Source of the DNA: Archaeoglobales archaeon
GTDB lineage: Archaea; Halobacteriota; Archaeoglobi; Archaeoglobales; Archaeoglobaceae
Assembly (NCBI GenBank): GCA_030055595.1
Contig: JASFYH010000009.1
Span: forward strand, 1-62,997
Direction: 5' to 3'
Length of the DNA stretch: 62,997 bases
Under the pieces are notes generated by a model. That model was not told where the DNA came from and did no database searches. It worked only from the letters and a program-made list of their open reading frames with translations. Every line of letters starts with the position of its first letter. Positions within the stretch are counted from its first letter, which is position 1. Positions 1,956 through 54,261 of this stretch are shown piece after piece. A program made the translations under genes and the position numbers.

Positions 1956-2693
1956 ATGGAGTGGTATTGGATCGGTTTGGTAATTATATTGCTGATCTTT
2001 TTGGCTTCGTCAATAAGGATCGTGAAGGAGTATGAAAGAGGCGTAATTTTCAGGCTTGGAAGACTTATCGGAGCTAAGGGGCCTGGGTTATTCTTTATAA
2101 TTCCGATCTTGGACAAAATGGTAATAGTGGATCTTAGAACGGTTACATATGACGTTCCCGCACAAGAAGTTGTTACAAAGGACAATGTTACGGTAAAGGT
2201 GAATGCGGTCGTTTACTATAGGGTTATTGATCCCGCAAAGGCGGTAACAGAAGTCTTCAATTATATGTATGCCACCGCTCAGATTGCTCAGACGACGTTA
2301 AGAAGCATAATAGGTCAGGCAGAGCTTGATGAAGTGCTATCGGAAAGAGAGAAGCTGAACATAAAGCTTCAGCAGATCATAGACGAGGCAACAAATCCAT
2401 GGGGGATCAAGGTGACAGCGGTCGAGATCAAAGACGTCGAATTGCCAGAAGAGATGCGCAGAGTAATGGCAATGCAAGCGGAGGCAGAGAGGGAGAGAAG
2501 ATCCAAGATCATCAGAGCGGAGGGAGAATATCAGGCTTCTATGAGACTAAAAGAGGCTGCAGACGTTCTGGCACAAAGCGAGGGGGCTTTGTTCCTTAGA
2601 TACCTGCAAACTCTTAGCGACGTCGCAGCAGAGAAGAACACAACGATCGTGATCCCCGTGCCTGTTGAACTGCTTAAGATCTACAAAAAATAA
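1956..2693 (+). CDS. Stomatin/prohibitin-like SPFH (band 7) membrane protein
   Basis: 245 residues. One N-terminal membrane segment (about residues 4-20) is followed by the SPFH domain ([36 protein letters not shown]) and a charged helical region with [16 protein letters not shown], the typical stomatin oligomerisation helix. A TATA-like cttaataa lies about 30 bp upstream of the ATG. Stomatins scaffold membrane microdomains and often pair with an NfeD-family protein or a membrane serine protease. No such partner is adjacent here; prs follows after 19 bp on the same strand. Family assignment is strong, cellular role unknown. Confidence 0.92.
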
Positions 2694-2712: not shown

Positions 2713-3549
2713 ATGGATCTCGTAATTTGTCCCTCCTCGCCATTACTCGGGAAAAAGATCTCTGAAAGCCTCGGTATAAAAATTGCGAACGTTCAATACA
2801 AAAGATTTCCTGATGGTGAACTTTACGTCAGAGTTGAAAGCAATGAAAATAGCCACTTAATTATTGGGAGCCTTGTTTCCGCTGAGGACGTAATTTTAAT
2901 GGATCTGCTTTTCGACGCCCTGAAGGGGGAAGTATTGCCCATAATTCCCTATATGGGATATGCAAGGCAGGATCGTGAGTTTTTGCATGGAGAAGCGGTT
3001 AGTATAAGAGCAATTGCTAAGATCATCGAAGAGAGGGCGGATATAGTAATTACTGTTAACATTCACAGCAATAAAGCAAAAGAGAGCTTTAAAAAGCTGA
3101 TAGATCTTGATGCAATGCCACTAATCGGAGAGCATTTCAGAGAAAAGGAAATAATTATGGTTTCTCCCGATAAGGGCTCTGCAGAACGTGTTAAAGTTGC
3201 GGCAAAGGTTGCAAACTGCGATTGGGACTGGCTTGAAAAGAAAAGAATTGATGCTCAGACTGTCGAAATCGCTCCCAAAAACATAGATGTTGAGGGAAAA
3301 AATGTGTTGATCGTTGACGACATAATCTCGACTGGTGGAACAGTCATTGAAGCTACCAAAAGGCTATATGAGCTTGGAGCAAAAAAGGTTGAGAGTGCCT
3401 GCGTTCATGCGGTGCTTGCTGAATTTGCAGCCGTAAAACTTTTCTCAGCAGGCATAGCGGAGATCACAGCTACAGACACAATTGAAAAGATCTTTTCAAA
3501 GATCAGCGTTGCAGAGATTCTCTCGCAGAAGATCAGAGAGGTTTCTTAG
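2713..3549 (+). CDS. prs: Ribose-phosphate pyrophosphokinase (PRPP synthetase), complete copy
   Basis: 278 residues, normal for archaeal PRPP synthetases. It makes PRPP from ribose 5-phosphate and ATP for nucleotide, histidine and tryptophan synthesis. Visible motifs: PYMGYARQDREF (ATP/ribose-phosphate loop), VTVNIHS, SPDKGSAERV and the PRPP-binding loop VLIVDDIISTGGT. This copy has the complete N-terminus (MDLVICPSSPLLGKK). Its stop codon overlaps, in convergent orientation, the stop of the restriction gene (3546-3549). A second, 5'-truncated copy lies at 5812-6591. From 3348 onward the two copies are almost identical, while upstream they are clearly diverged. Confidence 0.96.
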   Translation: MDLVICPSSPLLGKKISESLGIKIANVQYKRFPDGELYVRVESNENSHLIIGSLVSAEDVILMDLLFDALKGEVLPIIPYMGYARQDREFLHGEAVSIRAIAKIIEERADIVITVNIHSNKAKESFKKLIDLDAMPLIGEHFREKEIIMVSPDKGSAERVKVAAKVANCDWDWLEKKRIDAQTVEIAPKNIDVEGKNVLIVDDIISTGGTVIEATKRLYELGAKKVESACVHAVLAEFAAVKLFSAGIAEITATDTIEKIFSKISVAEILSQKIREVS

Positions 3550-3597
3550 AGCTTCAGTATTTGTAAAAATTTTTTCCAGTCTTCCTTTCTCCATTTT
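3348..3597 (+). repeat. Direct repeat, left copy (prs 3' end plus restriction-gene tail)
   Basis: These 250 nt match 6390-6639 (offset 3042) with two differences (3471 T/C and 3490 A/G). The tract holds the last ~67 codons of prs and 48 nt beyond its stop, which encode in antisense the last 16 residues of the restriction enzyme. Immediately upstream of 3348 the copies differ at many third codon positions; immediately downstream of 3597 they share almost nothing. The sharp edges suggest gene conversion or recombination between the two prs copies after the R-M genes were in place. Confidence 0.95.
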
Positions 3598-4517
3598 AGC
3601 TCACTTATTGGCACGATATACCTTTCTTCTCTCACTACGCCGAGATATGGTAGATTTACTCCTTCCTTTATAGTTTCATAATCTGCGGTTTGAAAATATC
3701 CACATACAAAGCCTTTGAGTTCTGTTTGAATTTCACCACATTTAAATTCACGAACTCTATTCTTTATCTTTTCAAGATAAACTGAAAAGGTTTTGTCATC
3801 CTCAGGAATTCTATTTTCTGCAAACTCAAGAAGTCTTGTAAACCCACAAACTTCTATAAAGAATTGAATAATTGGTTGTTGAGGCACTTTGCACTTTACC
3901 ATTATTCCATAGTCGTATCCTTTATCCGCTTCAGCCCAAATTCCCGCAAGTGTCGGTGAAGTTTTAATACTAACATTTTTTTCTGCGTTGAGTAGATCAT
4001 TCCTGAATTTTTCGATTTCTGGAGAGATTTTCCAGTCCAACTCAACATTTATCTTAAAATTACTTTCAAAATACTTCTTTACGAACACTTCGCCGAGTTT
4101 CCCAACAAATTGATCGACCAAGATCGACTCGAAAGTTCTCCTTCTCTCTCTAAAGCCTTTTTGTGTTATAGTTGCCCTACTTCCTCCACCAAACATTTCA
4201 TATGTCATCTCTATACAGAATATCAATAATCTAATAACATCCACATCGTCAAGCCTTAGAAGTAAAGTATTTGGAACTAATTTTTTGTAGATCCAATCCT
4301 CAAGTCTCTCCAAGTTTATCCTAAAATCTCTATTTTTCTCTTCCAAAACATTAAAATCGTTGCTACGACATGCGGAAAGTATTAGATCTGCAAGCTCTTC
4401 TTTATCAAAATACATTCCGCATTTTTCTGAAATCTCATAACGAAGAGAATTTATGTAATCGGAAAGCCTTTCTCTGAATTTACTTGGACTTTTAAGCTCA
4501 GCTTTAGAAATCCACAT
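3546..4517 (-). CDS. Probable type II restriction endonuclease (PD-(D/E)xK-like)
   Basis: 323 residues, 4 nt downstream of the DNA methyltransferase gene on the same strand, the usual layout of a type II R-M pair. I do not recognise the specificity. A candidate nuclease core is visible: GKLGE (Glu143), VELD (Asp161) and VSIKT (Lys185), compatible with a PD-(D/E)xK fold in which the Ser-x-Lys element replaces (D/E)-x-K. That is inference from motif spacing. A CfrBI-type enzyme would be one candidate to test. The stop codon and last residues lie in sequence shared with the prs repeat, and the stop overlaps the prs stop. The gene is AT-rich and looks acquired. No frameshift is visible, so it may be active. 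Confidence 0.7.
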   Translation of the reverse strand: MWISKAELKSPSKFRERLSDYINSLRYEISEKCGMYFDKEELADLILSACRSNDFNVLEEKNRDFRINLERLEDWIYKKLVPNTLLLRLDDVDVIRLLIFCIEMTYEMFGGGSRATITQKGFRERRRTFESILVDQFVGKLGEVFVKKYFESNFKINVELDWKISPEIEKFRNDLLNAEKNVSIKTSPTLAGIWAEADKGYDYGIMVKCKVPQQPIIQFFIEVCGFTRLLEFAENRIPEDDKTFSVYLEKIKNRVREFKCGEIQTELKGFVCGYFQTADYETIKEGVNLPYLGVVREERYIVPISELKWRKEDWKKFLQILKL

Positions 4518-4521
4518 ACTC

Positions 4522-5763
4522 TCATTTTCGAAGAACTACTAAATGTTCCGTTTTCATCCTACTATCTCTAATTCCAGAAGCGGGATTAACAGGAGACTCA
4601 AACATAACTCTCGCAACAATTTGATCTATGTAGGTTATTTCATGCTTCCATCCGAGCTCTGTTAGATGTTCAACGATGATCTCATCGATCGGAACTTTCA
4701 TCGTCCTTATTTTTGCTTGTCCGACAAATATGCACATGAAATCCTCGATCTTTTCGCCAAGCTTTTCAAATGCTCCGAGAATTGCATAAAAGTATTGATC
4801 GTACAATTTTAGAAGATGTTCTTCCTTGATCCTATCCCTAAACTCATGAAAAGTTGGAGAACGGACTTCTATTTTGTTTATTTTTCGATAGGGGATTTCC
4901 TTTTCACTCAGATTTCGAATAAATTCCTCCGAATACCCAAGCCAGAAAAGTTCAAGCTTTGTAGATCGTATATATTCCTGTGCTTGTAGATATGGCGGGG
5001 AAGTTATGAGAAGATCCGCTTCTTTTTCAAGTTTCGTCTCGAGGGTGTCTATTCCTGCTCGGACCTCGAAATTCACATCTTTTGGTTTCATTCTATTGTA
5101 TTCTACGATCTTCTTCAAAAGGATCCTAATTTCTTCCTCGAGCATACTATAAAATTTTTCTTTCCAGTTGCTCTTTAAAAGTTCCGTCACCTTCTTTTTC
5201 GAGTATTTTGATCTGTAAAGTTTATGCACTTTCTCGTCCGCATAAGAAAAATACTTCGTAACTTTCATAAGTGGAACTAATAAAGCATATTTCAACTCCC
5301 CCTCAAGCTCATGAGCATGGCCCCAACTCTTAGACAGAACTTCTATAAATTCTTCCGGAAACCAATATTCTAAATTCGACCATCTTGGTAAGAATTCCGA
5401 CGAGCATTTTTTAATCTCTGAAATAAATTCGTAAAGGTTTATGTCAATCTGCTTTGAGGTTGCGGTGTCGTGTAGAACTTTGATTATCGGATTTAAATCC
5501 CAGATCTCATAATCGTTTCCATAAACTCTCGCTACAACGCCTGTGGTTCCGTAGCCAGCGAATGGATCAAAAACTTTCATCTTAGGATTAGCATATTTTT
5601 TTAAAACATAAGCTATCACTTGTGGAATGAACTTTGCGGGATACTTGTATATAGCAAAAGTAGCATAAGTTGTGCTGGGAATCTCAGGCACTGAATTTCT
5701 AAAAAGAATTTTAACTTTCCTTTCTTCTTCGTCCTGATTTAACTTTGTCTGTCGAAATTGCAC
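4522..5763 (-). CDS. Type II DNA methyltransferase, probably N4-cytosine
   Basis: 413 residues from a GTG at 5763. A TATA-like atttaaaaaa lies about 25 bp upstream of that GTG, favouring a leaderless start. The frame stays open to 5898, but the extra residues would be antisense to the prs copy and are unlikely to be translated; TTG at 5802 is another option. Motif I (FDPFAGYGTTG, about residue 65) precedes the catalytic motif IV (TSPPY, about residue 254). That order is the gamma class, and TSPPY favours m4C, though m6A cannot be excluded. It protects DNA from the restriction enzyme encoded 4 nt downstream. A large target-recognition region lies between the motifs. Confidence 0.88.
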   Translation of the reverse strand: MQFRQTKLNQDEEERKVKILFRNSVPEIPSTTYATFAIYKYPAKFIPQVIAYVLKKYANPKMKVFDPFAGYGTTGVVARVYGNDYEIWDLNPIIKVLHDTATSKQIDINLYEFISEIKKCSSEFLPRWSNLEYWFPEEFIEVLSKSWGHAHELEGELKYALLVPLMKVTKYFSYADEKVHKLYRSKYSKKKVTELLKSNWKEKFYSMLEEEIRILLKKIVEYNRMKPKDVNFEVRAGIDTLETKLEKEADLLITSPPYLQAQEYIRSTKLELFWLGYSEEFIRNLSEKEIPYRKINKIEVRSPTFHEFRDRIKEEHLLKLYDQYFYAILGAFEKLGEKIEDFMCIFVGQAKIRTMKVPIDEIIVEHLTELGWKHEITYIDQIVARVMFESPVNPASGIRDSRMKTEHLVVLRK

Positions 5764-5811
5764 ATATATTAACTTACTGAGATTTTTTAAATTTTTCTCC
5801 AAAAAATTTTC

Positions 5812-6591
5812 ATTGGAGCAAAGATTGCGAATGTTCAATACAAGAGATTTCCAGATGGCGAATTTTACGTTAGAGTGGATAGCGAAGAAGACACGCACGT
5901 GGTGGTTGGAAGCTTAAATTCAAGCAATGACATAATCCTGCTTAATCTGCTTTTTGATGCCTTGAAGGGCGATGTTATAGCGGTCATACCATACATGGGA
6001 TATGCAAGGCAAGATAGGGAATTTCTGAAAGGAGAAGCGGTAAGCATAAGGGCAATTGCAAAGATAATCGAGGAAAGAGCGGGACGTGTGCTTACTGTCA
6101 ATATTCACAGCATTAAAGCGAAAGAGAACTTCAAGAAGTTAATAGACGTAGATGCGATGCCATTAATCGGCAAGCACTTTAAAGACAAAAATATCGTAAT
6201 GATTTCTCCAGACAAGGGTTCCGCTGAAAGGGTTAAAGTTGCTGCAAGAGTTGCAAATTGCGAGTGGGATTGGCTTGAGAAGAAGAGAATTGATGCTCAG
6301 ACTGTTGAGATAACTCCAAAGAATCTCGATATAGATGGGAAAAAAGTTGTTATCGTAGACGATATAATCTCAACTGGCGGAACAGTTGTTGAAGCTACCA
6401 AAAGGCTATATGAGCTTGGAGCAAAAAAGGTTGAGAGTGCCTGCGTTCATGCGGTGCTTGCTGAATTTGCAGCCGTAAAACTTTTCTCAGCAGGCATAGC
6501 GGAGATCACAGCCACAGACACAATTGAAAAGGTCTTTTCAAAGATCAGCGTTGCAGAGATTCTCTCGCAGAAGATCAGAGAGGTTTCTTAG
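5812..6591 (+). pseudogene. Second PRPP synthetase copy, truncated at the 5' end
   Basis: Homology to prs starts at about 5815 (GAKIANVQYKRF), so the first ~22 residues of the complete copy, including the N-terminal beta strand, are missing. An in-frame stop lies at 5788-5790. The only starts left are a non-standard ATT (5812) or an internal GTG at 5875. The rest of the frame is intact to the stop at 6591, with PDKGSAERV and IVDDIISTGGT preserved. Differences from the complete copy upstream of 6390 are mostly at third codon positions, so this sequence evolved under selection before being truncated. Most likely it is now a non-functional repeat arm of the inserted R-M genes. Confidence 0.8.
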
Positions 6592-6639
6592 AGCTTCAGT
6601 ATTTGTAAAAATTTTTTCCAGTCTTCCTTTCTCCATTTT
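6390..6639 (+). repeat. Direct repeat, right copy (prs 3' end plus orphan restriction-gene tail)
   Basis: Right arm of the 250-nt near-identical repeat (left arm 3348-3597). After the prs-copy stop at 6591, positions 6592-6639 duplicate the last 16 codons of the restriction gene in antisense, although no restriction gene is present here. Sequence native to the moaB side resumes at 6640. Recombination between the two arms would delete 3042 bp, remove both R-M genes and leave one full-length prs followed by this 48-nt scar. Confidence 0.95.
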
Positions 6640-6651
6640 GGCTTCAAAAAA

Positions 6652-7161
6652 CTAAGCCAATCCCTTAGCGTGGCTCAGGATATGCTTCAGAGAGGCTTTT
6701 ATAATTTCCAAACCAAGCTGAACCGCTTTTTTTGACCCTGGAAGACAGAAGACGACCCTTCCATTTATTATACCCGCCGTGGCTCTTGAAAGAATAGCGG
6801 AATAACCAACTTCTTTGAAGCTCTGCATCCTGAAGATCTCTCCAAAGCCATCAATCTTCTTATCGAAAAGATCCTCAAGAGCTTCGATCGTAAGATCCTT
6901 TGGATTAAGTCCTGTTCCACCAGTAATAATACAAACATCTGCAGATCTCAAAACGTCAAAAACTGCGGATCTAATTTGAATTAGATCGTCTGAAACAAGT
7001 CGATAATCCAACACAGAACCCTTAAAAGCTTCAAAAATGGCCATTCCGGACTCATCATCCTCGGGAATATTTTTAATGCCCATTATAGAGCCGTATTTGT
7101 TGAATCTCGAAGTTGAAACGGTAATTATTGCAACCTTGTAATCAAATTCTCTCTCATGCAT
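6652..7161 (-). CDS. MoaB/Mog-family molybdopterin adenylyltransferase
   Basis: 169 residues from the ATG at 7161, which overlaps the fen stop codon (TAATG), indicating coupled translation; a GTG at 7170 would add three residues. Family motifs: VAIITVSTSR at the N-terminus and VCIITGGTGLNPKDLTIEAL, the molybdopterin-binding GGTG loop. A C-terminal FCLPGSKKAVQ matches the PGS element of MogA/MoaB. In archaea this protein adenylylates molybdopterin before insertion of tungsten or molybdenum, needed for tungsten oxidoreductases and formylmethanofuran dehydrogenase. It is transcribed downstream of fen with no obvious functional link. Confidence 0.9.
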   Translation of the reverse strand: MHEREFDYKVAIITVSTSRFNKYGSIMGIKNIPEDDESGMAIFEAFKGSVLDYRLVSDDLIQIRSAVFDVLRSADVCIITGGTGLNPKDLTIEALEDLFDKKIDGFGEIFRMQSFKEVGYSAILSRATAGIINGRVVFCLPGSKKAVQLGLEIIKASLKHILSHAKGLA

Positions 7162-8168
7162 TAGAACCACCTCTCCAGTGTGAATTGCGCCGGTTTTATT
7201 TTCAGCTTTTCCAGAGCTTTCTCGACTCTATCTTGGCTAAAATCGTGCTCTTCACAGAGCATTTCGATAACTTTTTCTTTTTCTGGTTCTCTGAATTCTA
7301 TCTTATAGCCATCAGTAACCTTCGGGTTCAGGAAAAAGTCTCGAATTGCCTCTAAATTTTCGATTTCGGAATTTAAGGCTTTTAATGCTCTAAAAATATC
7401 CCCATAGGTTTTAATATAGTTATAGGCTTTTTTAGCTCCAACTCCCTTAATCCCCTCGTTGTAATCTGTTCCGCAGAGAATTGCTATGTCAATAAGTTGT
7501 TCTCTCGTTATTCCAAGCTTCTTTAGATTATTCTCAAGGTTTATGATCTCGGGATTTATGTCAACGTAAACATTTTTTCTCGGTAACTTTCTCTTTCCAG
7601 TTATTGCAAGATTTCTAACGAGCTTTGGAGTGCCAAAAAGCAAAGAATCATAGTCTTGACTGCCCACAAGATCCGCATCACCTTTTTTAACCATATGAGC
7701 CGCCTGAGCTTCGCCCTCGCATGGAGCCTGAACAAAGGGGATCCCCATTAACTCAAGCAATCTTTGTGAGCTTTCAACTATGAACTCGTCAACCCTTGCA
7801 GAAGCCTGAGCATACTTCTTCGCATACCCTTCACCGCTTTCCACAGCAACCACCCATTTTTCTTCTGCCTCAGCTCTCCTCTTTTTTCTTTCTTCAATTT
7901 CCGCCTTTTTAAAATCTGGTGGTTCGCCGTCGAAGACGAAGATCGGTTTGATCCCAAGTTCAACCATGTTCGTAACTCTATAAAGAATACCTGAAAGGTG
8001 AGAAGTTATCCTTCCCTGAGAGTCCTTCAAAGGTGTTCCATCTGGCTGTCTTATGGTAGATATGAATTGGTAAAGTGTGTTGAAAGCATCTATTGCGATC
8101 TTCATGCCAGAAAGAGAGCTAAGTTCAATTTCATCTCTTTCAAGTAGATCCCCGATGTCCGCTCCCAT
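7161..8168 (-). CDS. fen: Flap endonuclease 1 (FEN-1/XPG family)
   Basis: 335 residues, typical of archaeal FEN-1, which removes 5' flaps during Okazaki fragment maturation and repair. The N-terminal nuclease domain starts GADIGDLL; acidic metal ligands occur in [45 protein letters not shown] and [14 protein letters not shown] (helix-hairpin-helix). The last eight residues, QFTLERWF, form a textbook PIP box for the PCNA clamp, so the C-terminus is complete. Divergent from the TatD-like gene, with an AT-rich gtttaaatca-type element upstream of the start. Confidence 0.97.
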
Positions 8169-8262
8169 AATTTAACTTTCGATCGATGATTTAAAGCTTT
8201 TTTACACAAAACAATTCAACTCAGAAACCGATCGATTTATTTTCCCAAGTAAGATCTACTTC

Positions 8263-8994
8263 ATGCTCTTCGATCCTCATGTCCACACCGAAGGTCTTGG
8301 ACTCTCAGATCTGAAGAAAATGCGAGAGTGCGGTATAACTCATATTTGCGATCTATACTTTTATCCCATAAAGCCATTGTTTCCGCAGACTCTGATAGAT
8401 GGATTTAGGAAACTCAGAGAATTTGAAAAATTTCGCTGTTCGTTAGCAGATCTGAAAATGATTCCCGCTGTTGGGATCCATCCAAGATCTATACCGCCCG
8501 ATTATGCCACTGTTTTAAATTTCCTCGGATCAAATGATTGGGATGCATTTGGAGAGATCGGGCTTGAAATAGCCAGTAAAGAAGAGATCGATGTTTTCGA
8601 AAAACAGCTAAAGTTGGCGATGGAAAAAGACGTTCCGTGTATAATTCACACCCCCGGAAAAAATAAACGAGAAATAACAATAAAGACTCTTGAAATTCTG
8701 GATAAATTGAACTTTCCTGAGGAATTAGCAGTAATAGACCACGTTAACTTTGAAAACCTCGATTTGGTAGCCAAAAGGGGTTTCTGGATCGGTCTGACGG
8801 TTCAAGAGGGGAAGCTCACTAAGGAGGAGGCAGTAGGAATTGTAGAGGAGATTGGAGAAGTTAAGTGCATACTGAATAGCGATGCGGGCTTTGGAAACAA
8901 TGTTCTGACCACAGTTGCTGAAACAGCAAAGCTCTTGGGTGACAAGGCGAAAAAGGTTTGTTTTGAGAATGCTAAGAAATTTCTGAGGGTCTAA
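8263..8994 (+). CDS. TatD-like metal-dependent hydrolase (archaeal amidohydrolase)
   Basis: 243 residues with the TIM-barrel metal ligands of the TatD/amidohydrolase superfamily: FDPHVHTEG at the N-terminus, [33 protein letters not shown] and LNSDAGFG. The archaeal branch (COG1099-like) lacks a defined substrate; TatD relatives are DNases or phosphodiesterases. It shares a 94-bp divergent intergenic region with fen and is followed after 1 bp by the dCMP deaminase gene, suggesting one transcript. Function beyond the superfamily level is inference. Confidence 0.85.
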
Positions 8995-8995
8995 T

Positions 8996-9442
8996 ATGCG
9001 ACCAACTCTTGACGAATATTTCATGGAGATCGCAAAAGTCATCGCAAAGCGTTCAACATGCCTAAGGAAGAAAGTAGGAGCGGTAATTGTTAAGGATAAG
9101 CGAATATTAGCCACAGGATACAATGGAGCCCCCTCCAATCTGCCCCACTGCGAAGAGGTTGGATGCATGCGAGACAGGCTTGGAGTCCCAAGTGGTGAGA
9201 GGCAAGAGCTTTGTAGAGGAGTTCATGCAGAGCAAAATGCAATTCTACAGGCTGCGAAGTTTGGAATAAGCGTTGAAGGGGCAACACTTTATTCAACACA
9301 CTGCCCTTGTATAACATGTGCGAAGATTATAATAAACGCTGGAATAAAATGTGTGGTCTATGGTAAAGAATATGCGGATAGAAATGGGCTTAAATTGCTT
9401 GAGGAAGCTGGCTTAGAAGTAAGATACTTCCCTTGTGAGTGA
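8996..9442 (+). CDS. Deoxycytidylate (dCMP) deaminase, ComEB family
   Basis: 148 residues. Zinc ligands and catalytic residues are visible: GVHAEQNA (His plus general-base Glu) and [11 protein letters not shown] (PCxxC). The CMP/dCMP-type insert CEEVGCMRD with paired cysteines and the [12 protein letters not shown] motif identify a dCMP deaminase rather than a cytidine deaminase. It converts dCMP to dUMP for thymidylate synthesis. Follows the TatD-like gene by 1 bp. Its stop at 9442 directly abuts the convergent eL40 stop at 9443. Confidence 0.93.
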
Positions 9443-9592
9443 TTACTTTCCTTTTCTCTCCTTTGATTTTGGTCTTAAGCCTCTATATCCGCATTTTCTA
9501 CAAGTTTCTGCCTTTATTGGATTCCTTGCATTACACCGCATGCAGATCTTTACATTGAACAACCTTGCTTCAGCTTCAGGAAACCTTGCCAT
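9443..9592 (-). CDS. rpl40e: Large-subunit ribosomal protein eL40
   Basis: 49 residues, short enough to be missed by length cut-offs. Translation starts [13 protein letters not shown] and contains the zinc-binding CMRCNARNP and [12 protein letters not shown], the C2-type zinc finger of archaeal eL40. The C-terminus is strongly basic. Length and motif spacing match the family exactly. The gene ends back-to-back with the dCMP deaminase gene with no spacer. Confidence 0.95.
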
Positions 9593-9704
9593 GAGTGGAC
9601 TGCTGCATACGATATATAAATCCTTCCGAAATCAAAAAATCAAATAAAAGCCCCCCTATCGGAAAACTTAAAAAATGCAAGTGTATATGTAGGATAAAAA
9701 AGAT

Positions 9705-9777
9705 GCCGCCGTGGCTCAGCTGGAAGAGCGGGTGACTCGTAATCACCAGGTCGCGGGTTCAAAGCCCGCCGGCGGCT
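9705..9777 (+). tRNA. tRNA-Thr (anticodon CGT)
   Basis: A full cloverleaf can be folded: acceptor GCCGCCG/CGGCGGC, D arm GCTC/GAGC, anticodon stem GGTGA/TCACC with loop CTCGTAA (anticodon CGT, reads ACG), T arm GCGGG/CCCGC with loop TTCAAAG, discriminator T. CCA is not encoded and no intron is present. An AT-rich element (acttaaaaaa) about 35-40 bp upstream fits a promoter. Confidence 0.97.
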
Positions 9778-9876
9778 TACTTTGTTTAAAATTCAACTCT
9801 ACCTGAGATGATTAGGAAAATCAGAAGTCGATTGCGGTGAGACAAGTTTATATCTTCCCAGGTTATTTAAATTTCG

Positions 9877-10557
9877 ATGAAGATAGGTTGCTGTGGTTTT
9901 CCGATTTCAATGGATAAATACTTCATGAAATTTGAAGTAGTAGAAGTGCAAAAAACTTTCTACAAGCCTCCAAATTTAGAGACTGTAAAAAAATGGAGAG
10001 CTAAAGCTCCTGAAGACTTTGAATTCACAGTCAAAGCTTGGCAAGTTATAACTCATCCCCCAACAAGTCCAACTTATCGCAAAGCGGGTCTTAAGCTTGA
10101 AGACGCTGGATTTTTTAAGCCCATAGAGGAAGTATTTAGAGCGTGGGAGGTAGTTAGAGAGATAGCAAAGGCTTTAAAAGCAAGATTTATACTTTTTCAG
10201 ACTCCGAAGAGCTTCAAAGAAGAGGAGGCAAGTATCAAAAACATGGTGGAATTTTTCAATTCAATTGAACGTGAATTCGTATTTGGCTGGGAGGCAAGAG
10301 GGTGGAGTGCAGACACGATCAGAAGGGTTTGCGAGTCCTTGAGTTTGATTCACGTTGTAGATCCTTTCGAATCTGCACCAGTCTACGGAGAACTAAAGTA
10401 TTTCAGAATCCACAGGAATCACACGGAAGAGGAGATCTTTTCATTACTCGGCAAAGCGAATTACGTGATGTTTAACAATCCTTTTATGCTACAAGATGCG
10501 GAAAAATTAAAGAAGAGGAGGGATGAAGTTGAGGGAAAAGATCTTAAGAGTGCTTAA
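9877..10557 (+). CDS. DUF72 (YecE-like) TIM-barrel protein
   Basis: 226 residues with DUF72 hallmarks: an N-terminal glycine-rich IGCCGFP, VEVQKTFYKPP, FEFTVKAWQVITH and FGWEARG. The biochemical role of the family is unknown. TATA-like tttatatct lies about 27 bp upstream of the ATG. The gene overlaps purP by 35 bp in another frame, so the two are probably co-transcribed. The purP start inside its 3' end has its own Shine-Dalgarno (gaggaggg). Confidence 0.88.
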   Translation: MKIGCCGFPISMDKYFMKFEVVEVQKTFYKPPNLETVKKWRAKAPEDFEFTVKAWQVITHPPTSPTYRKAGLKLEDAGFFKPIEEVFRAWEVVREIAKALKARFILFQTPKSFKEEEASIKNMVEFFNSIEREFVFGWEARGWSADTIRRVCESLSLIHVVDPFESAPVYGELKYFRIHRNHTEEEIFSLLGKANYVMFNNPFMLQDAEKLKKRRDEVEGKDLKSA

Positions 10558-11596
10558 AGATTACGATCTTGCAAATATTAGCATCGCAACTCTTGGAAGC
10601 CATTCAGCTTTGAACATTCTAAAGGGTGCTAAGGATGAGGGTTTCGAGACGATCTGCATCTGCAAAAAAGGTGAAACTGCGGTTTACAGAAATTTTGGAG
10701 TGGCTGATAAGATCATAGAGGTTGAAAGCTTCGAAGAATTGCTAAAGAAAGACATTCAGGATCTTCTCAAAAAGCAAAATGCAATTCTGATCCCTCACGG
10801 TTCTTTCAATGCCTATATTGGGAAATTAGACGCTCTTGAAGTGCCTCTATTCGGAAACAGAAAGTTAATGGAGTATGAGACCAGCAGAGAAAAGCAGAGA
10901 GAATGGTTTAGAAAGGCAAACGTTCGCATTCCAAAGGAGTTCAAGAGCCCGGAGGAGATCGATAGGCTATGCATTGTGAAATATCAAGGTGCAAAAGGGG
11001 GAAGAGGGTATTTCCTTGTTTCTTCCCCGGAGGAATTTCGCAGAAAGGCGGATAGAATGATAAAAAATGGGTTAGTTGGTCAGAAAGAGCTGGAAAATGC
11101 TGAGATCCAGGAATACATTCTCGGAGCCAACGTTTACTTTTCCTTTTTCTATTCTCCAGTCAATGATCGGATCGAGCTGATTGCGATCGATCGTAGGTAT
11201 GAGCATGTGGATGGAATAGGAAGAATTCCCGCAGAAGAGCAGTTGAAATTGTCTTTAGAGCCAACTTACACAATAATTGGGAATTTTCCTGTCGTGCTTC
11301 GGGAAAGTCTTTTGAATCAGGCTTTTGAGAGTGCTGAAAGGATCGTTGAAGTTTCAAAAGAGATTGCATACCCGGGGATGGTAGGGGCTTTCTGCATTGA
11401 AACGATCTTCAATGAGAGGGCGGAGTTATTTGTTTTCGAGATCTCCGCAAGGATCGTTGCGGGGACAAACGTTGGGATCCCAAGTTCTCCATACTCTTAC
11501 ATTCTATTCGGGGAGAATATGTATATGGGTCGCAGAATTGCGAGGGAGATCAAAATTGCCATTGAGAAGGGAATGGTTGAAGAGCTGATCTATTAG
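10523..11596 (+). CDS. purP: FAICAR synthetase PurP (formate-dependent purine biosynthesis)
   Basis: 357 residues. PurP ligates formate to AICAR using ATP, the ninth step of IMP synthesis in archaea that lack the bacterial PurH transformylase. Signature sequences: ISIATLGSHSALNILKGAKDEGF at the start, IPHGSFNAYIG, ATP-grasp elements VKYQGAKGGRGYF and EYILGANVYFSFFYS, and FEISARIVAGTNVG (metal/ATP site). A strong Shine-Dalgarno sits just before the ATG, within the upstream DUF72 gene. Confidence 0.95.
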   Translation: MKLREKILRVLKDYDLANISIATLGSHSALNILKGAKDEGFETICICKKGETAVYRNFGVADKIIEVESFEELLKKDIQDLLKKQNAILIPHGSFNAYIGKLDALEVPLFGNRKLMEYETSREKQREWFRKANVRIPKEFKSPEEIDRLCIVKYQGAKGGRGYFLVSSPEEFRRKADRMIKNGLVGQKELENAEIQEYILGANVYFSFFYSPVNDRIELIAIDRRYEHVDGIGRIPAEEQLKLSLEPTYTIIGNFPVVLRESLLNQAFESAERIVEVSKEIAYPGMVGAFCIETIFNERAELFVFEISARIVAGTNVGIPSSPYSYILFGENMYMGRRIAREIKIAIEKGMVEELIY

Positions 11597-25432: not shown

Positions 25433-26101
25433 CTAAATCAACCCCAGAAACTCAAGTGCCTCAACAACCCCGTCGCCATCGTTTGACGGCGTGATTAAAT
25501 CTGCAAGTTCCTTTAGCCTTTGATCAGCATTCGCCACCGCAATCCTGAAGCCCGCAACTTCAAACATCTCTATGTCATTTTCAGAATCGCCAATGACCGC
25601 AAAATCCTTCGCTTCGACTTTCAAATGCTTGGCTATGAACTCCAGTGCTCCACCCTTACTGACCTTTTTGTCCGCAATGTGATAGGCAAACCCAGAGTCG
25701 AGAAGTTTGACATCGAAATCCTTTAGGATCTCCCTTGCTCTTTGAATGTCGAAATTCCTTCGCATGCAAACCTCCGATTTTCGGTATTCGAAATCCAGTA
25801 GCTCAACGCTGAAGTGCTTTTTGAGTTCCTCAAGAGCCTTCAGGCATTTTTCTTTGTTTCCGAGTATTATGTCCTCTCCATCGTAGCTGAATCGCACAAC
25901 TCCTCCATTTTCACAGATCACGATATCAGAGACGCCAATCACCTTTGCAACCGCCTTGGCGAAGCATGGGACGTTGCCAGTTGCAAGGATCACCGGGATC
26001 TTCAGCCTCCTCAAAGCTTCAACCGCTCTTAAATTTAGTGCCCGTCTTCGATCCGTGATCGTGCCATCTATGTCTACCGCTATAGCCTTTGGTTTGAACA
26101 T
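25433..26101 (-). CDS. Phosphoglycolate phosphatase, archaeal HAD type
   Basis: 222 residues, HAD superfamily with a type IIB cap. Motif I AVDIDGTITD (nucleophile Asp), motif II LATGN, motif III Lys in KKVSKG, motif IV VIGDSENDIEMF. Length and cap match archaeal phosphoglycolate phosphatases (TIGR01487 type), which clear 2-phosphoglycolate; related proteins act on other sugar phosphates. It starts immediately after the phaC stop (26101/26102) on the same strand, so it is probably last in a phaE-phaC-phosphatase transcript. Confidence 0.88.
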   Translation of the reverse strand: MFKPKAIAVDIDGTITDRRRALNLRAVEALRRLKIPVILATGNVPCFAKAVAKVIGVSDIVICENGGVVRFSYDGEDIILGNKEKCLKALEELKKHFSVELLDFEYRKSEVCMRRNFDIQRAREILKDFDVKLLDSGFAYHIADKKVSKGGALEFIAKHLKVEAKDFAVIGDSENDIEMFEVAGFRIAVANADQRLKELADLITPSNDGDGVVEALEFLGLI

Positions 26102-27205
26102 TTAGATCTCTTTTGTTTTCTTTAAGCTTCCGCTTCTTTCTGCAAGCCACTTCGCGACTTCATCCCACAAAGCCATTCCTCGACGTGAAACCACAAGTCC
26201 AACATGGCCAACGTCAGCCTTGAAAACCGCTTTGTCTTTGCTACCTATAACGTCTAAGAATTTCAGCGTGTTTTCTGGTGGTGCCAAGTGATCTCTTAAG
26301 CCAACAACAGCTGCGGTGGGCATTGTGATCTTCTTTGGATCAACTCTCTTTCCCTTAATGTAAAGCTTTCCTTCCGCAAGCGCGTTGTTCTGGTAAAGCT
26401 CCTGATTGTATCTCACATAAGCTCCGGGAGCAACATTAACACCATCGTGGATCCAGCGTTCCATTCTAAAGAAGTCATCTATGAATTCCTCATCCTCAGC
26501 ATTCATGAACAGATTAATGTATTTGCCAAAGTAGTTGCCCCAAGGTTCGAGGATCTTAAATCTCTCAGCAATAAACCAAGAGGGCACGTAGCCAAAGGGT
26601 GCAACGATCTCCTCAGGGTTGAAGAACCTCTTATCAGACAACGTCAAAAGTCCGCCGATCTTCCTGTCGAAGTAAAGGGTTGAGGCAAGGAAGATTATGT
26701 TCTTAACGTTCTCAGGGTAAAGTGCGGTATACATTGCACTCATTCCGCCACCCATGCAGTAGCCGAGGATCGAAACTTTGTTTGAATTTGCATCCCTCTT
26801 GACATCTTCTACAAAGTCCGCAAGGAAAATGTCGATGTAGCTGTCCAAGGAGAACTGATCCGCAATCGTCGCATCGCCCCACTTGATCATGTAAACGTTA
26901 AAGCCCGCATCAAGCAGTTTTCTCACCACACTTCTCTGCGGTGTCAGATCAAGAATGTATGGCTTGTTGATCAAAGCGTAAACGATCAGCAATGGCACTT
27001 CGTATTGCTTTTCTGTTCTCGGCTCATATCGATAGAGCTTTACTCCGTCGTCTGAGGAGATCTCAACTCTTGGTGTTGCTCCGACTTTAACGTCTGGGAT
27101 CAGGTAAGGCTTGTCTTCAGTTATCGGCAAAAAATTTGGATTCTTAATGAACCACTCTGTCAGCTTTAAAGCCCTTCTGTAGTTTCTCAAAGCCTCATTG
27201 ATCAT
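26102..27205 (-). CDS. phaC: Polyhydroxyalkanoate synthase, class III, catalytic subunit
   Basis: 367 residues from ATG 27205, overlapping the phaE stop by 11 bp. Alpha/beta hydrolase fold with the PHA-synthase lipase-like box GYCMGG (Cys150). Catalytic Asp305 is in VGLRDHLAP and His334 in DVGHVGL, very close in position to the Cys149/Asp302/His331 triad of class III synthases. LTPQRSVVRKLLDAGF, YMIKWGD and YNQELYQNN are also family-typical. It polymerises (R)-hydroxyacyl-CoA into storage polyester. Known in haloarchaea; less expected in an Archaeoglobales-like genome. Confidence 0.9.
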   Translation of the reverse strand: MINEALRNYRRALKLTEWFIKNPNFLPITEDKPYLIPDVKVGATPRVEISSDDGVKLYRYEPRTEKQYEVPLLIVYALINKPYILDLTPQRSVVRKLLDAGFNVYMIKWGDATIADQFSLDSYIDIFLADFVEDVKRDANSNKVSILGYCMGGGMSAMYTALYPENVKNIIFLASTLYFDRKIGGLLTLSDKRFFNPEEIVAPFGYVPSWFIAERFKILEPWGNYFGKYINLFMNAEDEEFIDDFFRMERWIHDGVNVAPGAYVRYNQELYQNNALAEGKLYIKGKRVDPKKITMPTAAVVGLRDHLAPPENTLKFLDVIGSKDKAVFKADVGHVGLVVSRRGMALWDEVAKWLAERSGSLKKTKEI

Positions 27206-27743
27206 TTGAACCACCTCTCGCTTTTTCGAGTTTCTCAACCCTCCCTTCAAGAGCTTTGATCCCTTCTAAGATCTTCCTTGATTCCTTTTTTATATCTCCC
27301 TTTAGATCTACGTAAGCTTCAGAAAGGGCAATTACGTCTTTTCTCGAAACCATTCCGAGAGAATGCAGGATCGCACTCGTAAAGTTCTGCAAATTCAGCA
27401 AAGTTCGCATGTAGGCACTGTTGATCGCATTGATCCATGCAGAAACGACCGCATTATCCATATACTCTGCATAGATCTCCTCAATCTTTGCCATTGCATT
27501 TCCTATTGCCCTTGCAATCTCTTCACCGTCCTTCTTTGCAAAGGCGTTTGTTAGATCCACTAAGAAACCCCAGTAAGCTTTATTCAGCTCAAAAATAAGT
27601 CTTACACTATTTTTATAAAATTCATCAAATTCTTCTTCGCTGAGCTCTTTAAAATATGTCCTTGGATTCGTCACCGTTAAAAAGAACTCATTAAAAGCTT
27701 TTGCGGTTTTAAAAACCTCTTCAAAGAATTTTGAATCCATCAT
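27195..27743 (-). CDS. phaE: PhaE-like subunit of class III PHA synthase
   Basis: 182 residues, mostly helical, with conserved aromatic-rich segments. The C-terminal SRKDVIALSEAYVDLKGDIK, followed by a coiled coil (ALEGRVEKLEKARG), matches the PhaE C-terminus (SRxEVDxLxxxLxxLxxxV pattern). PhaE is needed for PhaC activity and forms the synthase complex on the granule surface. Identity is supported mainly by position directly upstream of and overlapping phaC. An AT-rich region upstream of 27743 probably holds the operon promoter. Confidence 0.8.
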   Translation of the reverse strand: MMDSKFFEEVFKTAKAFNEFFLTVTNPRTYFKELSEEEFDEFYKNSVRLIFELNKAYWGFLVDLTNAFAKKDGEEIARAIGNAMAKIEEIYAEYMDNAVVSAWINAINSAYMRTLLNLQNFTSAILHSLGMVSRKDVIALSEAYVDLKGDIKKESRKILEGIKALEGRVEKLEKARGGSNDQ

Positions 27744-27861
27744 ATTTAAGAATACTTCAGTTAAAATTTAAACTTTTCTTAATCAAATAATTGTGAAATT
27801 TAAAGTCGGAAACTTTAGTTAAATTTTTATCTTACTGCAATTTTAACAATTGGTGCGATCA

Positions 27862-29112
27862 ATGGATCAATTCTCCAAGCCGGAACCTGAGAGGAGCAGG
27901 TGGTTCATAGTTATTTCTGGGCTTATCATAAACCTTTGTATCGGTTCAATTTATTCATACAGCGTTATTCAGGTGCATTTAAGGAAGCTGTTCGAAGATC
28001 TTGGGCTCAGGGTTTCTGCAACTGAGATGCAGATTCCTTTCATCGTCTTTCTCTTGTTCTTCGCAATTACAATGCCGATAGCGGGTAGGTATATAGAAAA
28101 ATTTGGTCCGAGAAAGGTTGCATACTTCGGAGCAATTTTAGTCGGATTGGGGTGGTTTTCAGCCTCATTTGCATCTTCTCCGCTCGATTTAGCGGTTTTA
28201 TATGGAGTTATAGGCGGTATTGGCGTTGGAGTTGCATACAATTGCCCTATTGTGTCAGTTGGAAGATGGTTCCCCGATCGAAGAGGTTTAGCTCTTGGTA
28301 TAACGTTGTTCGGCTTTGGGGTTTCTGCAGCCATAATCGCTCCTGTTTTTGACTTCTTGGCAGTTAATTTTGGAGTAATTTTGACATTTAGGATTCTTGG
28401 AGTTCTCTTCTTCATTCTAATTTTGCTTTTTGCCACTTTTTTAAGCTTTCCACAAGAAGGATGGAGACCTGCGGGGTGGACAATGCACGAGGAGAAAAGA
28501 AAAGTGTTTATGGAGCTTAGAAGAGAAGAAATGATCCGAACAAGGCAATTTTATGGATTGTGGGCATCTTTTATGATTGGAACTTTAGCGGGACTTATGG
28601 CAATAGGCATATCAAAACCCGCTGGGCTTGAAGTCGCTCAAAACGCGGGAATTGGCGAAGCGCAAATCTCAATTCTGCTCACCGCTTTGATCGTTCCATT
28701 TGCCCTATGCAATGGGATTGGGAGACCTCTTTTTGGATTCATTACAGATAAAATTGGAGTTATGAGAACCGCTATTCTCTCCTTCTTCCTGATCTTTCTT
28801 GCTTCCCTGAGCATTTTCCTGAATCCCAAATCTATTATTGCATACACTCTTTCCTTTGCAATTTTATGGCTAAATCTTGGAGGCTGGCTCGCGATAGCTC
28901 CAACAGCCACCGCATTTCTTTTTGGAACAAAAGACTACGCAAAGAATTACGGTATTGTTTACACAGCCTATGGAGCGGGAGCAGTCATTGGTAACCTTCT
29001 TGCGGGTCAGTCAAAGGATCTTTTTGGAGCCTACCTCATGGTATTCCCATTTGTGGCACTATTGGCTATTCTTGGAATATTTGTTGCTCTTACAGGCCTG
29101 AGGACGAAATAA
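27862..29112 (+). CDS. Major facilitator superfamily transporter, OxlT-like
   Basis: 416 residues from ATG 27862 (MDQFSKPEPERSRW); TTG 27850 is an alternative. Twelve hydrophobic segments. MFS loop motifs: AGRYIEKFGPRKVAYFGAIL and GRPLFGFITDKIGVMRTA. The N-terminal INLCIGSIYSYSVI and GGIGVGVAYNCPIVSVGRWFPDRRGLALG match oxalate/formate antiporter-type MFS proteins, common in Archaeoglobus and usually carrying mono- or dicarboxylates. The substrate cannot be predicted. Its stop is next to that of the convergent malate dehydrogenase. Confidence 0.88.
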   Translation: MDQFSKPEPERSRWFIVISGLIINLCIGSIYSYSVIQVHLRKLFEDLGLRVSATEMQIPFIVFLLFFAITMPIAGRYIEKFGPRKVAYFGAILVGLGWFSASFASSPLDLAVLYGVIGGIGVGVAYNCPIVSVGRWFPDRRGLALGITLFGFGVSAAIIAPVFDFLAVNFGVILTFRILGVLFFILILLFATFLSFPQEGWRPAGWTMHEEKRKVFMELRREEMIRTRQFYGLWASFMIGTLAGLMAIGISKPAGLEVAQNAGIGEAQISILLTALIVPFALCNGIGRPLFGFITDKIGVMRTAILSFFLIFLASLSIFLNPKSIIAYTLSFAILWLNLGGWLAIAPTATAFLFGTKDYAKNYGIVYTAYGAGAVIGNLLAGQSKDLFGAYLMVFPFVALLAILGIFVALTGLRTK

Positions 29113-29113
29113 T

Positions 29114-29989
29114 TCAATATCCTATATCTTTTATCCATTTCTTCAGGATTTCAGCAGAATTCCTCAGCTTCTCCAAGTCCTTTTCACTTAGCTCAAGCTC
29201 AACCACTTCAGCACCATTTTTGCTTAGCCTTGCGGGAACTCCAAGGGCTACATCTTTTATCCCATACTCCCCGTTTAGCACAACACTTGTCGGGATGATC
29301 TCGCCTGTGTCCTCAACAACCGCCTTAACCATTCTGTAAACCGCTGTGCCGGGCCCATAAACAGTCGCTCCTTTTCTCTTGATAACTTCTGCAGCGATCT
29401 GCCTTACTTCCTTTTCAACCTGCTCCCAGTTTGCCTTAACTTCCGCAAGGCTTTCTGCGATGAACATGCTGTCTCCATGCTCTCCAATGATCCAAGCCTT
29501 TCCTGATCTTATTCCAATCGAGTTCAGTCTTTGCATAAGCCTTGCAGAGTCAAGCAAGCTCCCCATTCCAAAAACCTCCTCACGCCTCTTCCCGCTTTCC
29601 CTCCATGCGACGTAGGTCATGAGATCCATCGGATTAGTCACGACAAGGATCTTGCTCTCCTTAGAGTGCTTTACAATGTTCTTAACAACTTCCCGCATAA
29701 CTTCAACGTTCTTCGTTGCAAGATCAAGCCTCGTCATTCCCGGTTTTCTTGCAAAGCCGGCGGTGACTACGATCACCTCGGAACCTTTAAGCAAAGAGTA
29801 ATCAGTTCCGCCAACGATTTTTGGGAATTTGCCAAGCAACGCACCCGCATGAGATAGATCTATAGCCTCACCAACAGCCAAGTCCTCAGCGATGTCAACC
29901 AAGGCAATTTCGTTGAGATCCATGTTCGTAAGGCAAGCATAAGCGGATAAACTTCCAACTCTGCCCGCACCAACAAAACCTATTTTCAT
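29114..29989 (-). CDS. mdh: Malate dehydrogenase (LDH-like family)
   Basis: 291 residues, as short as the Archaeoglobus enzyme. Motifs: IGFVGAGRVGSLSAY (NAD loop), DIAEDLAVGEAIDLSHA, TAGFARKPGMTRLDL (substrate-contacting Arg, which favours malate over lactate), VVTNPMD and IIGEHGDSM (catalytic His). It interconverts malate and oxaloacetate with NAD(H). Family assignment is certain. Malate preference is inferred from the Arg in the active-site loop. Confidence 0.95.
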   Translation of the reverse strand: MKIGFVGAGRVGSLSAYACLTNMDLNEIALVDIAEDLAVGEAIDLSHAGALLGKFPKIVGGTDYSLLKGSEVIVVTAGFARKPGMTRLDLATKNVEVMREVVKNIVKHSKESKILVVTNPMDLMTYVAWRESGKRREEVFGMGSLLDSARLMQRLNSIGIRSGKAWIIGEHGDSMFIAESLAEVKANWEQVEKEVRQIAAEVIKRKGATVYGPGTAVYRMVKAVVEDTGEIIPTSVVLNGEYGIKDVALGVPARLSKNGAEVVELELSEKDLEKLRNSAEILKKWIKDIGY

Positions 29990-30080
29990 ACTTCGAGTTC
30001 TCTCCGAAGCTTTAAATTTTTAGATTTCATCTCAAGAGGAAAACATTAAAGTGTTGCCTCCTTGACTTTTTGTGTCTTAA

Positions 30081-30152
30081 GCCCCCGTGGGGTAGCGGAC
30101 ATCCTGGAGGCCTTCGGAGCCTCAGACCCGGGTTCGATTCCCGGCGGGGGCG
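30081..30152 (+). tRNA. tRNA-Arg (anticodon TCG), CCA encoded
   Basis: Cloverleaf: acceptor GCCCCCG/CGGGGGC, D arm around GGGTAGCGGACATCC, anticodon stem GAGGC/GCCTC with loop CTTCGGA (anticodon TCG, reads CGA), T arm CCGGG/CCCGG with loop TTCGATT, discriminator G. Genomic CCA follows at 30153-30155. No intron. A VapBC module lies 170 bp downstream. Confidence 0.96.
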
Positions 30153-30321
30153 CCATTTTTCCCCCTATCATTAGTCCAAATTGCAAAGCTCAAAGCAAGG
30201 ACAAAGAAATCCTGAGGGGCTATTAAAACGTCAGTAGCATTTGTATAAAAAGTAGAAGAGTCTTCATAATTGATTTTTGTTGGAATGGTAAAAGTTATTA
30301 AGAATACCATATATTAAAGTT

Positions 30322-30540
30322 ATGGGAATAGAAATCAAGAAAATGGATAGACATGGGAGAATTGTAATTCCAAAGAAATGGAGGGAAAAAATTGGGGAAG
30401 AGGTAATTCTGGTTATGTATGAAGACAAGCTCGAAATACTGCCGAAGAAGGGTAATTTGCTTCGTTTCCTCGACAGCGTTGAAGTTGAAGAACTCAGGGA
30501 ATGGGAAAGAATGAGAAAAGAGCTTTATGAGATTCGTTGA
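30322..30540 (+). CDS. vapB: AbrB-family antitoxin (VapB)
   Basis: 72 residues. The N-terminal swapped-hairpin AbrB DNA-binding domain is clear (IKKMDRHGRIVIPKKWREKI, VILVMYEDKLEILP), followed by a short acidic/basic tail that would bind the toxin. It overlaps vapC by 14 bp, typical of toxin-antitoxin pairs with coupled translation. AT-rich upstream sequence (gttattaaga, about 25 bp before the ATG) may be promoter and operator for autoregulation. Confidence 0.9.
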   Translation: MGIEIKKMDRHGRIVIPKKWREKIGEEVILVMYEDKLEILPKKGNLLRFLDSVEVEELREWERMRKELYEIR

Positions 30541-30940
30541 CTCAAACGTTTTGATCTATGCATTTCTGAAGCCTAAAAAGGAGCCTGATAAAAGCCTCGC
30601 TGAGATCAAAAATAGCGCAGTGGAAATCTTGAAAAGAATTCAAGAGGGAGAAGAGATCGCAACAACTGTTGTGCATTTAAGTGAGGTTGCAAATCTGATT
30701 GCAAGCAGAAAAGATTTGAAGACTTCCGCAGAATTCATCTTTGAGTTCATGAGCCTCAAGAATGCCAAAGTTTTCGATGTCAGTGAAGAAGATTATCTTA
30801 AGGCTTCTCTTATCGCAATCGAGAAAGAAGTTGACGTGAACGATGCCTTGGCTTACTTGAAGATGAAAGAGAATGGAATTAGAGAAATATACACCTTTGA
30901 TAGTCATTTCAGGAAATTGGATGTTTTGGTTGAGAAATAA
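30527..30940 (+). CDS. vapC: PIN-domain ribonuclease toxin (VapC)
   Basis: 137 residues, PIN domain. Catalytic acidic residues: Asp5 in FVDSNVLIYAF, Glu in VVHLSEVANLI, Asp in VNDALAY and Asp in TFDSHFRKL. VapC toxins cleave specific RNAs, often tRNA or 23S rRNA, unless bound by the cognate VapB. All four acidic positions are intact, so it is likely active. The immediate neighbour upstream of the pair is tRNA-Arg; a target relationship is not implied by that alone. Confidence 0.92.
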   Translation: MRFVDSNVLIYAFLKPKKEPDKSLAEIKNSAVEILKRIQEGEEIATTVVHLSEVANLIASRKDLKTSAEFIFEFMSLKNAKVFDVSEEDYLKASLIAIEKEVDVNDALAYLKMKENGIREIYTFDSHFRKLDVLVEK

Positions 30941-30978
30941 CTACCGCATTTTTAAATCCCAGAAACACTACGAAGTTT

Positions 30979-31350: not shown

Positions 31351-31383
31351 CTGCCTCACACTTTGGGCAAAGAGGTGTAAGAC

Positions 31384-32981: not shown

Positions 32982-33019
32982 GAAGGCTTTTAATTTATGA
33001 AGTGGTGCTAAATGTGGGT

Positions 33020-33214: not shown

Positions 33215-33215
33215 A

Positions 33216-34076: not shown

Positions 34077-34081
34077 AATAT

Positions 34082-34261: not shown

Positions 34262-34263
34262 TT

Positions 34264-35208: not shown

Positions 35209-35364
35209 GCTTCCCCTTCGCAAGGCTGATTAAAAATTTTTGGTGGCTTATTTCGCATTCCATCCTTTAAGCCCAAATTTAATCTTTGGAACTTCTGAAG
35301 AGCTTTTTCAACACTTCTTTATAGGCAAGGTATAGAAAAAGCAAAAATTGAAAAACAGCAGGAT

Positions 35365-48299: not shown

Positions 48300-48329
48300 G
48301 TAGTCCCAGAAGCCATACTGGGATTTAAA

Positions 48330-51588: not shown

Positions 51589-54261
<2,673 letters not shown>

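What the first reader, a model, noticed from the sequence alone, without database searches (positions are those of the whole stretch)
2713..6639. Restriction-modification pair inserted between two directly repeated prs genes
Seen: a complete prs (2713-3549), then a methyltransferase and restriction gene on the opposite strand, then a second prs lacking about 22 N-terminal codons and continuing into moaB. This resembles the 'insertion with long target duplication' described for R-M genes in Helicobacter pylori by Kobayashi and colleagues. Here, however, the two prs arms are diverged, mostly at third codon positions, in their 5' two-thirds. So one arm may have come with the R-M genes from a related species rather than from copying of the host gene. 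Recombination between arms would remove the R-M genes and leave an intact prs.
Basis: partly seen in the sequence, partly recalled or inferred. Interest (0 to 1): 0.75.

Follow-up and report, generated by a model that had tools for sequence, protein, structure and literature searches.

The report
Stray prs fragment beside R-M genes
In this heat-loving archaeon a restriction-modification gene pair sits between a working gene for PRPP synthase and a broken, patchwork second copy; a sister species indicates that the pair was there first and the broken copy was added later, partly from another species' DNA, so this is not the classic insertion with a duplicated target.

Summary
The anatomy is real: SPFH, intact prs1 (2713-3549), R (3546-4517, minus), M (4522-5763, minus), 5'-truncated prs2 (~5809-6591), moaB. 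First, the near-identity of the arms is confined to 251 bp (3347-3597 versus 6389-6639, 2 mismatches) and runs about 50 bp past prs into the R gene, so prs2 is followed by a copy of R's 3' end. Second, a sister species (G050) carries SPFH-prs-R-M-moaB with a single prs. So prs2 plus the R tail is most likely an ~830-bp insert placed between M and moaB after the R-M pair was there, not a target duplication made by R-M insertion. No empty site was found: in relatives without R-M, prs and moaB are not neighbours. Interspecies import is plausible, since G000 is mosaic against G053. The recombination route, and which arm is foreign, stay unresolved. An interesting scar made of known processes.

The parts
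1956..2693 (+). SPFH/band 7 gene, upstream neighbour of prs
   Evidence: PF01145 7.8e-44; the SPFH-prs pair is conserved in the genus
2713..3549 (+). prs1, intact ribose-phosphate diphosphokinase (arm 1)
   Evidence: NF002095 E 5e-89, above cut-off; 79% identical to G050 and G053 prs
3347..3597 (.). near-identical tract, arm-1 copy: prs 3' third plus R 3' end
   Evidence: 251 bp, 2 mismatches (3471, 3490) to 6389-6639
3546..4517 (-). R: predicted type II restriction endonuclease, 323 aa
   Evidence: weak direct PADLOC REase_II match (E 0.0019); a distant relative in G088 matches the same model at 8e-68 beside a C5 methyltransferase; paired with M in all six genomes with a complete R
4522..5763 (-). 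M: predicted m4C/m6A DNA methyltransferase, GTG start at 5763
   Evidence: PF01555 1.6e-8, PADLOC MTase_II 8e-28; invariant DPFAGYGT and TSPPY motifs
5779..5798 (-). M promoter-like A/T-rich element (AGAAAAATTTAAAAAATCTC), retained
   Evidence: conserved upstream of M in G050
5799..5808 (.). left junction of the inserted segment (M promoter to prs codon ~19)
   Evidence: G050 homology ends at ~5798 and prs homology begins at ~5809
5809..6591 (+). prs2, 5'-truncated mosaic prs (arm 2), probable recent pseudogene
   Evidence: lacks codons 1-18/22; first in-frame start GTG 5875; no stops or frameshifts; dN/dS 0.05 to prs1 over codons 23-211
6389..6639 (.). near-identical tract, arm-2 copy
6588..6639 (-). 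remnant copy of the 3' end of the R gene (last 16-17 codons)
   Evidence: tblastn of R, residues 308-323 at 100%
6636..6645 (.). right junction (R tail to moaB 3' flank); short TTTTnGCT similarity to the M-moaB spacer of G050
6652..7170 (-). moaB, downstream neighbour
   Evidence: PF00994 6.5e-26; directly beside M in G050
7161..8168 (-). fen1, linked to moaB in all genus members

Best explanation
The R-M pair is an older resident of a prs-R-M-moaB locus shared with a sister species. Later, in this lineage, an ~830-bp segment was inserted between the M promoter and moaB. The segment is prs from codon ~19 to its end plus the last ~50 bp of R. Its last 251 bp were copied from this locus's own prs-R junction. 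Its first ~580 bp (or the matching part of prs1) come from a congeneric species. Most likely route (inferred): a break in the M-moaB spacer, or one-sided (homology-facilitated illegitimate) recombination with a foreign prs fragment. One end was joined without homology at codon ~19. The other end recombined at the conserved PRPP-loop codons (~211), copied the local prs 3' end into R, and was then joined to moaB by short homology. Result: prs1 and R-M stay intact, prs2 is a dead copy, and the arms form a direct repeat spaced 3042 bp through which R-M could later be lost cleanly. Shown: anatomy, order relative to G050, tract boundaries, interspecies-level divergence. Inferred: the route, a single event, which arm is foreign. 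The confidence given is for the order of events (R-M first, mosaic prs2 later); the single-event route alone would get about 0.35.
For: G050 has acs-SPFH-prs-R-M / M-moaB-fen1-tatD-dcd with one prs. In both species the prs and R stop codons overlap tail to tail, i.e. the same ancestral junction. R and M diverge from G050 (74%, 80% aa) about as other genes of the locus do (moaB 79%, tatD 80%), consistent with co-descent. The 251-bp tract includes R coding sequence identical to the local R. Beyond it the arms fall abruptly to 75%. prs1/prs2 dN/dS is 0.05 and prs2 has the fewest unique amino-acid changes of five prs sequences, so prs2 was a selected full gene until recently. No other genome in the order shows two close prs copies. 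Sister grouping of the 5' parts is disfavoured, AU p 0.093/0.076. The moaB 3' flank resembles G050's more than that of G053 or G046. G000 versus G053 identity is bimodal over a genome sample (189 of 444 bins at or above 0.94, 178 below 0.84), with switches inside contigs, consistent with extensive interspecies exchange.
Against: The G050 locus is split over two contigs, with a ~170-bp gap inside M (C130/C145), in a 73%-complete MAG. Sister grouping of the arms is not formally rejected, and synonymous sites are saturated. No donor closer than ~78% nt was found. Microhomology at the junctions is short and could be chance. The window is itself a draft contig, and reads were not available to check it.
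Confidence: 0.65

Rival explanations
1. Duplication first, mosaic later (same order relative to R-M, different route): prs(19-278) plus the R tail was duplicated within the genome between M and moaB; afterwards ordinary homologous recombination with a congener replaced the 5' two-thirds of one arm (up to codon ~211).
For: Explains the 251-bp tract and the sharp mid-gene boundary; interspecies replacement with sharp block ends appears common in this genome.
Against: Needs two events; no sampled donor for either arm.
Confidence: 0.3
2. Displacement: a foreign SPFH/prs1-R-M cassette entered by homologous recombination upstream and illegitimate joining at codon ~19 of the resident prs, which survives downstream as prs2; the resident R-M was then lost except for ~50 bp, and the 3' ends were homogenised by gene conversion.
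For: Resembles the displaced-gene arrays proposed for Vibrio T6SS (PMC5361080); the prs2 5' part is marginally closer to G050 than prs1 is (0.775 vs 0.751 nt).
Against: Needs three events; SPFH and acs show no foreign signal relative to G050.
Confidence: 0.15
3. One reading: R-M genes inserted into prs-moaB with a long target duplication, one arm arriving with the R-M genes.
For: R-M lies exactly between direct repeats; R-M insertions with long repeats are described (PMC3874152 and PMC3031569).
Against: G050 has R-M at the same junction without prs2; arm 2 carries an R fragment; prs and moaB are not neighbours in any genus member lacking R-M.
Confidence: 0.07
4. Old tandem duplication within one lineage, 5' parts diverged in place, 3' ends kept alike by gene conversion.
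For: Gene conversion would give a conserved 3' tract.
Against: A truncated copy would not stay under dN/dS 0.05 for a species-level span; no stops or frameshifts; no relative has two close copies.
Confidence: 0.06
5. Assembly artefact: two haplotypes joined through the 251-bp tract.
For: Draft genome in 32 contigs; the tract is longer than typical short reads.
Against: Both outer junctions (M promoter|prs codon 19, R tail|moaB) lack shared sequence long enough to be misjoined, and the two arms keep distinct mismatches.
Confidence: 0.06

Closest known systems
R-M 'insertion with long target duplication' (Kobayashi and colleagues; summarised in PMC3874152 and PMC3031569)
   Same: R-M genes lie between direct repeats of host sequence; R-M sits at a rearrangement junction.
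   Different: R-M predates the repeat; arm 2 includes an R fragment; most of the arm is as diverged as another species' gene rather than a copy of the target; no empty site found.
HpyAII (HpyII) deletion and horizontal reconstitution through flanking repeats in H. pylori (cited in PMC7494987)
   Same: Direct repeats around an R-M pair that would allow its clean loss.
   Different: Here 251 bp at 99% (769 bp at 82%) from a housekeeping gene rather than 80-bp repeats; no deleted strain is known.
Homology-facilitated illegitimate recombination and displaced gene arrays (PMC3240628, PMC5361080)
   Same: One junction at homologous sequence, the other non-homologous; a truncated gene left downstream.
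   Different: The order here suggests prs2 was added, not displaced; the process has not been shown in Archaeoglobales.
Interspecies hybridisation in hot-spring populations (Yellowstone cyanobacteria, PMC12755884)
   Same: Mosaic identity between related species (abstract only consulted).
   Different: Archaea; only two draft genomes compared here.

Membership tests
[quoted passage not shown]
   G050 has R-M with one prs; genus members without R-M have prs and moaB apart
R-M insertion with long target duplication | The two repeats are copies of one target sequence | tested here: not met
   Only 251 bp alike at 99%; the upstream ~570 bp are 75% identical
R-M insertion with long target duplication | The repeat contains host target only, no R-M sequence | tested here: not met
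   ~50 bp of R 3' end lies in both copies
R-M insertion with long target duplication | Direct repeats at both ends of the R-M unit | tested here: met
   offset 3042 bp
Type II restriction-modification system | DNA methyltransferase with intact catalytic motifs | tested here: met
   PF01555, MTase_II, invariant DPFAGYGT and TSPPY
Type II restriction-modification system | Adjacent restriction endonuclease | tested here: inconclusive
   Conserved pairing with M in six genomes; weak REase_II match, strengthened through G088; low-confidence fold
Type II restriction-modification system | Cleavage and protective methylation of one site | not testable with these tools
   needs biochemistry or a methylome
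Homology-facilitated illegitimate recombination product | One homologous junction | tested here: met
   sharp 75% to 99% switch at 3346/3347, beside the conserved PRPP-loop codons
Homology-facilitated illegitimate recombination product | One non-homologous junction with little or no microhomology | tested here: inconclusive
   left junction resolved to about 10 bp, right junction shares TTTTnGCT; donor ends unknown
Homology-facilitated illegitimate recombination product | Foreign DNA between the junctions | tested here: inconclusive
   species-level divergence, AU p 0.08-0.09, donor not found

The most novel reading that the evidence does not exclude
The locus is a site where prs-R-M cassettes are exchanged between Archaeoglobaceae species and leave orphan prs arms. 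The leftover arm turns R-M into a reversible module that can be dropped or restored by recombination inside a housekeeping gene, always leaving prs intact.
Probability: 0.15. Interest if true: 0.6.

Novelty: new variant of a known kind. Interest (0 to 1): 0.36.

Why it matters
It warns that R-M genes between direct repeats need not be insertions with target duplication: a sister genome and a 50-bp R scrap reverse the order of events. It also offers a sequence-level record of probable interspecies recombination in a thermophilic archaeon, and a testable prediction of R-M loss variants.

Tried and rejected
R-M on viruses, plasmids or phages: no relatives of R found. Structure of R: AlphaFold from 5 sequences gave mean pLDDT 54, too poor to search. 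PDB sequence searches with R and M profiles found nothing significant. Trees of the prs 5' parts are star-like; they cannot say which arm is native. Scan of GTDB r220 contigs for a closer prs donor: none above 79% protein identity. Other R-M loci of the family were checked for flanking duplications: only G052 has a long one, and it is a tRNA repeat. The NAR 2010 Furuta/Kobayashi paper was not held, so its criteria are taken from later papers' summaries.

Full report
WHAT IS THERE. The order is SPFH (1956-2693, +), prs1 (2713-3549, +), R (3546-4517, -), M (4522-5763, -; the longer ORF to 5898 has no homologous support), prs2 (~5809-6591, +), moaB (6652-7170, -), fen1. prs1 passes the curated cut-off of the archaeal PRPP synthase model; prs2 lacks the N-terminal 18-22 codons and falls just below it.

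THE REPEAT. prs1 and prs2 are collinear at an offset of 3042 bp without indels. Codons 23-211 are 75.4% identical in DNA and 78.9% in protein; third positions are 50% identical. From 3347 to 3597 (6389-6639) they are 249/251 identical. This tract continues past the prs stop codon through the last ~50 bp of the convergent R gene, so arm 2 carries a 16-17-codon R remnant next to moaB.

COMPARISON WITH RELATIVES. Of 57 genomes of the order, 55 have a match to prs, and none besides the window's has two close full copies (second copies elsewhere are a distant paralogue at 30-38%). G050 is the only other genome found with R beside prs: its contig C130 reads acs-SPFH-prs-R-M and ends inside M; its contig C145 begins inside M and reads M-moaB-fen1-tatD-dcd. 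The two pieces cover M residues 158-458 and 46-101 (numbered from the 5898 start), so the gap is ~170 bp. The prs and R stop codons overlap tail to tail in both species, and M and moaB are ~50 bp apart in G050 with the M promoter element conserved. In G053 and G046, prs is followed by a NOB1-like gene and moaB by a solute-symporter-like gene and pyrD, at separate places. G048, G047 and G054 have other neighbours. Thus the R-M pair marks a junction that joins two otherwise separate regions in G000 and G050, and no empty site was found. R and M differ from G050 by about as much as other genes of the locus (R 74%, M 80%, moaB 79%, tatD 80%), consistent with descent from a common ancestral locus. 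Therefore the parsimonious order is: prs-R-M-moaB first, the prs2-R-tail insert later, in the window's lineage.

ARE THE ARMS FOREIGN TO EACH OTHER? prs1 and prs2 5' parts are no closer to each other (0.754) than each is to G050 (0.751, 0.775), G053 (0.746, 0.772) or G046 (0.753, 0.756). Trees are star-like. Holding prs1 and prs2 together costs 4.6 (aa) and 8.1 (nt) log units, AU p 0.093 and 0.076: disfavoured, not rejected. dN/dS between the arms is 0.05, and prs2 has the fewest unique amino-acid changes of the five sequences. So the prs2 5' part evolved as a working gene until recently, which a long-standing truncated in-genome duplicate would not do. Independent support for interspecies exchange: against G053, the window alternates between ~0.76 and 0.94-1.00 identity in blocks (25.6-36, 47-51.5 and 53-59.7 kb are high), and a sample of the genome is bimodal (209 of 444 aligned 500-bp bins at 0.92 or above, 178 below 0.84). 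The other genus members sit at 66-83% in one high block and one low block alike.

MECHANISM. Shown: insert position (after the M promoter, ~5799-5808; before moaB, ~6636-6645), the two tract boundaries, and the R remnant. Inferred: one-sided recombination or break repair that captured a foreign prs piece and copied the local prs-R junction, or a local duplication followed by replacement of one arm's 5' part. The homologous switch lies beside the most conserved codons (DDIISTGGT, codons 202-210), a natural crossover point. Consequence (inferred): prs1 stays functional; prs2 has no start before codon ~41 (GTG 5875) and should be dead; any crossover between the arms yields an intact prs and removes R-M as a 3042-bp circle, leaving the R scrap.

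THE R-M PAIR. M carries DPFAGYGT and TSPPY, invariant in five homologues, and matches type II methyltransferase models. R has no Pfam or NCBIfam match and only a weak REase_II match (E 0.0019). A distant relative in another family (G088; profile E 6.4e-4) matches that same model at 8e-68 and precedes a C5 methyltransferase, so R is a plausible but unproved restriction enzyme. R-M pairs occur in six genomes of the order including this one (R has one in-frame stop in G016), and decayed R pieces in G052 and G054. No relatives of R were found in the viral, plasmid or phage collections.

VERDICT. The target-duplication reading is contradicted by G050 and by the R scrap; the guess that one arm is foreign is supported but not proved. 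Caveats: draft assemblies, a split locus in G050, saturated synonymous sites, no reads.

Noticed in passing
window 25595-36000, 47000-51500, 53000-59700; also loci L133, L134, L259-L296: Mosaic identity to G053: blocks at 94-100% nt alternate with ~76% blocks within contigs, and a sample of the genome is bimodal. This suggests very extensive recent interspecies recombination, or chimeric assemblies; it may be more interesting than the assigned finding.
   Followed up: partly
L074 (G052:C69) 6980-10763: A relative of this R-M pair lies between 52-bp perfect repeats of a tRNA-Leu gene with an archaeal integrase (PF16795) ORF: a ~3.7-kb integrative element with R-M as its apparent only cargo.
   Followed up: partly
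L073:9747-9919 (G052:C62) and L075:2-428 (G054:C7): Decayed remnants of the same R gene at other sites, evidence of past gain and loss.
   Followed up: partly
window 3546-6650; G050 C130/C145: R-M marks a junction between the SPFH-prs region and the moaB-fen1 region, which are separate in other genus members: R-M at a rearrangement breakpoint.
   Followed up: partly
G052: No close prs or SPFH gene was found in this 95%-complete MAG although its moaB-fen1 region is present; probably an assembly gap, not checked.
   Followed up: no
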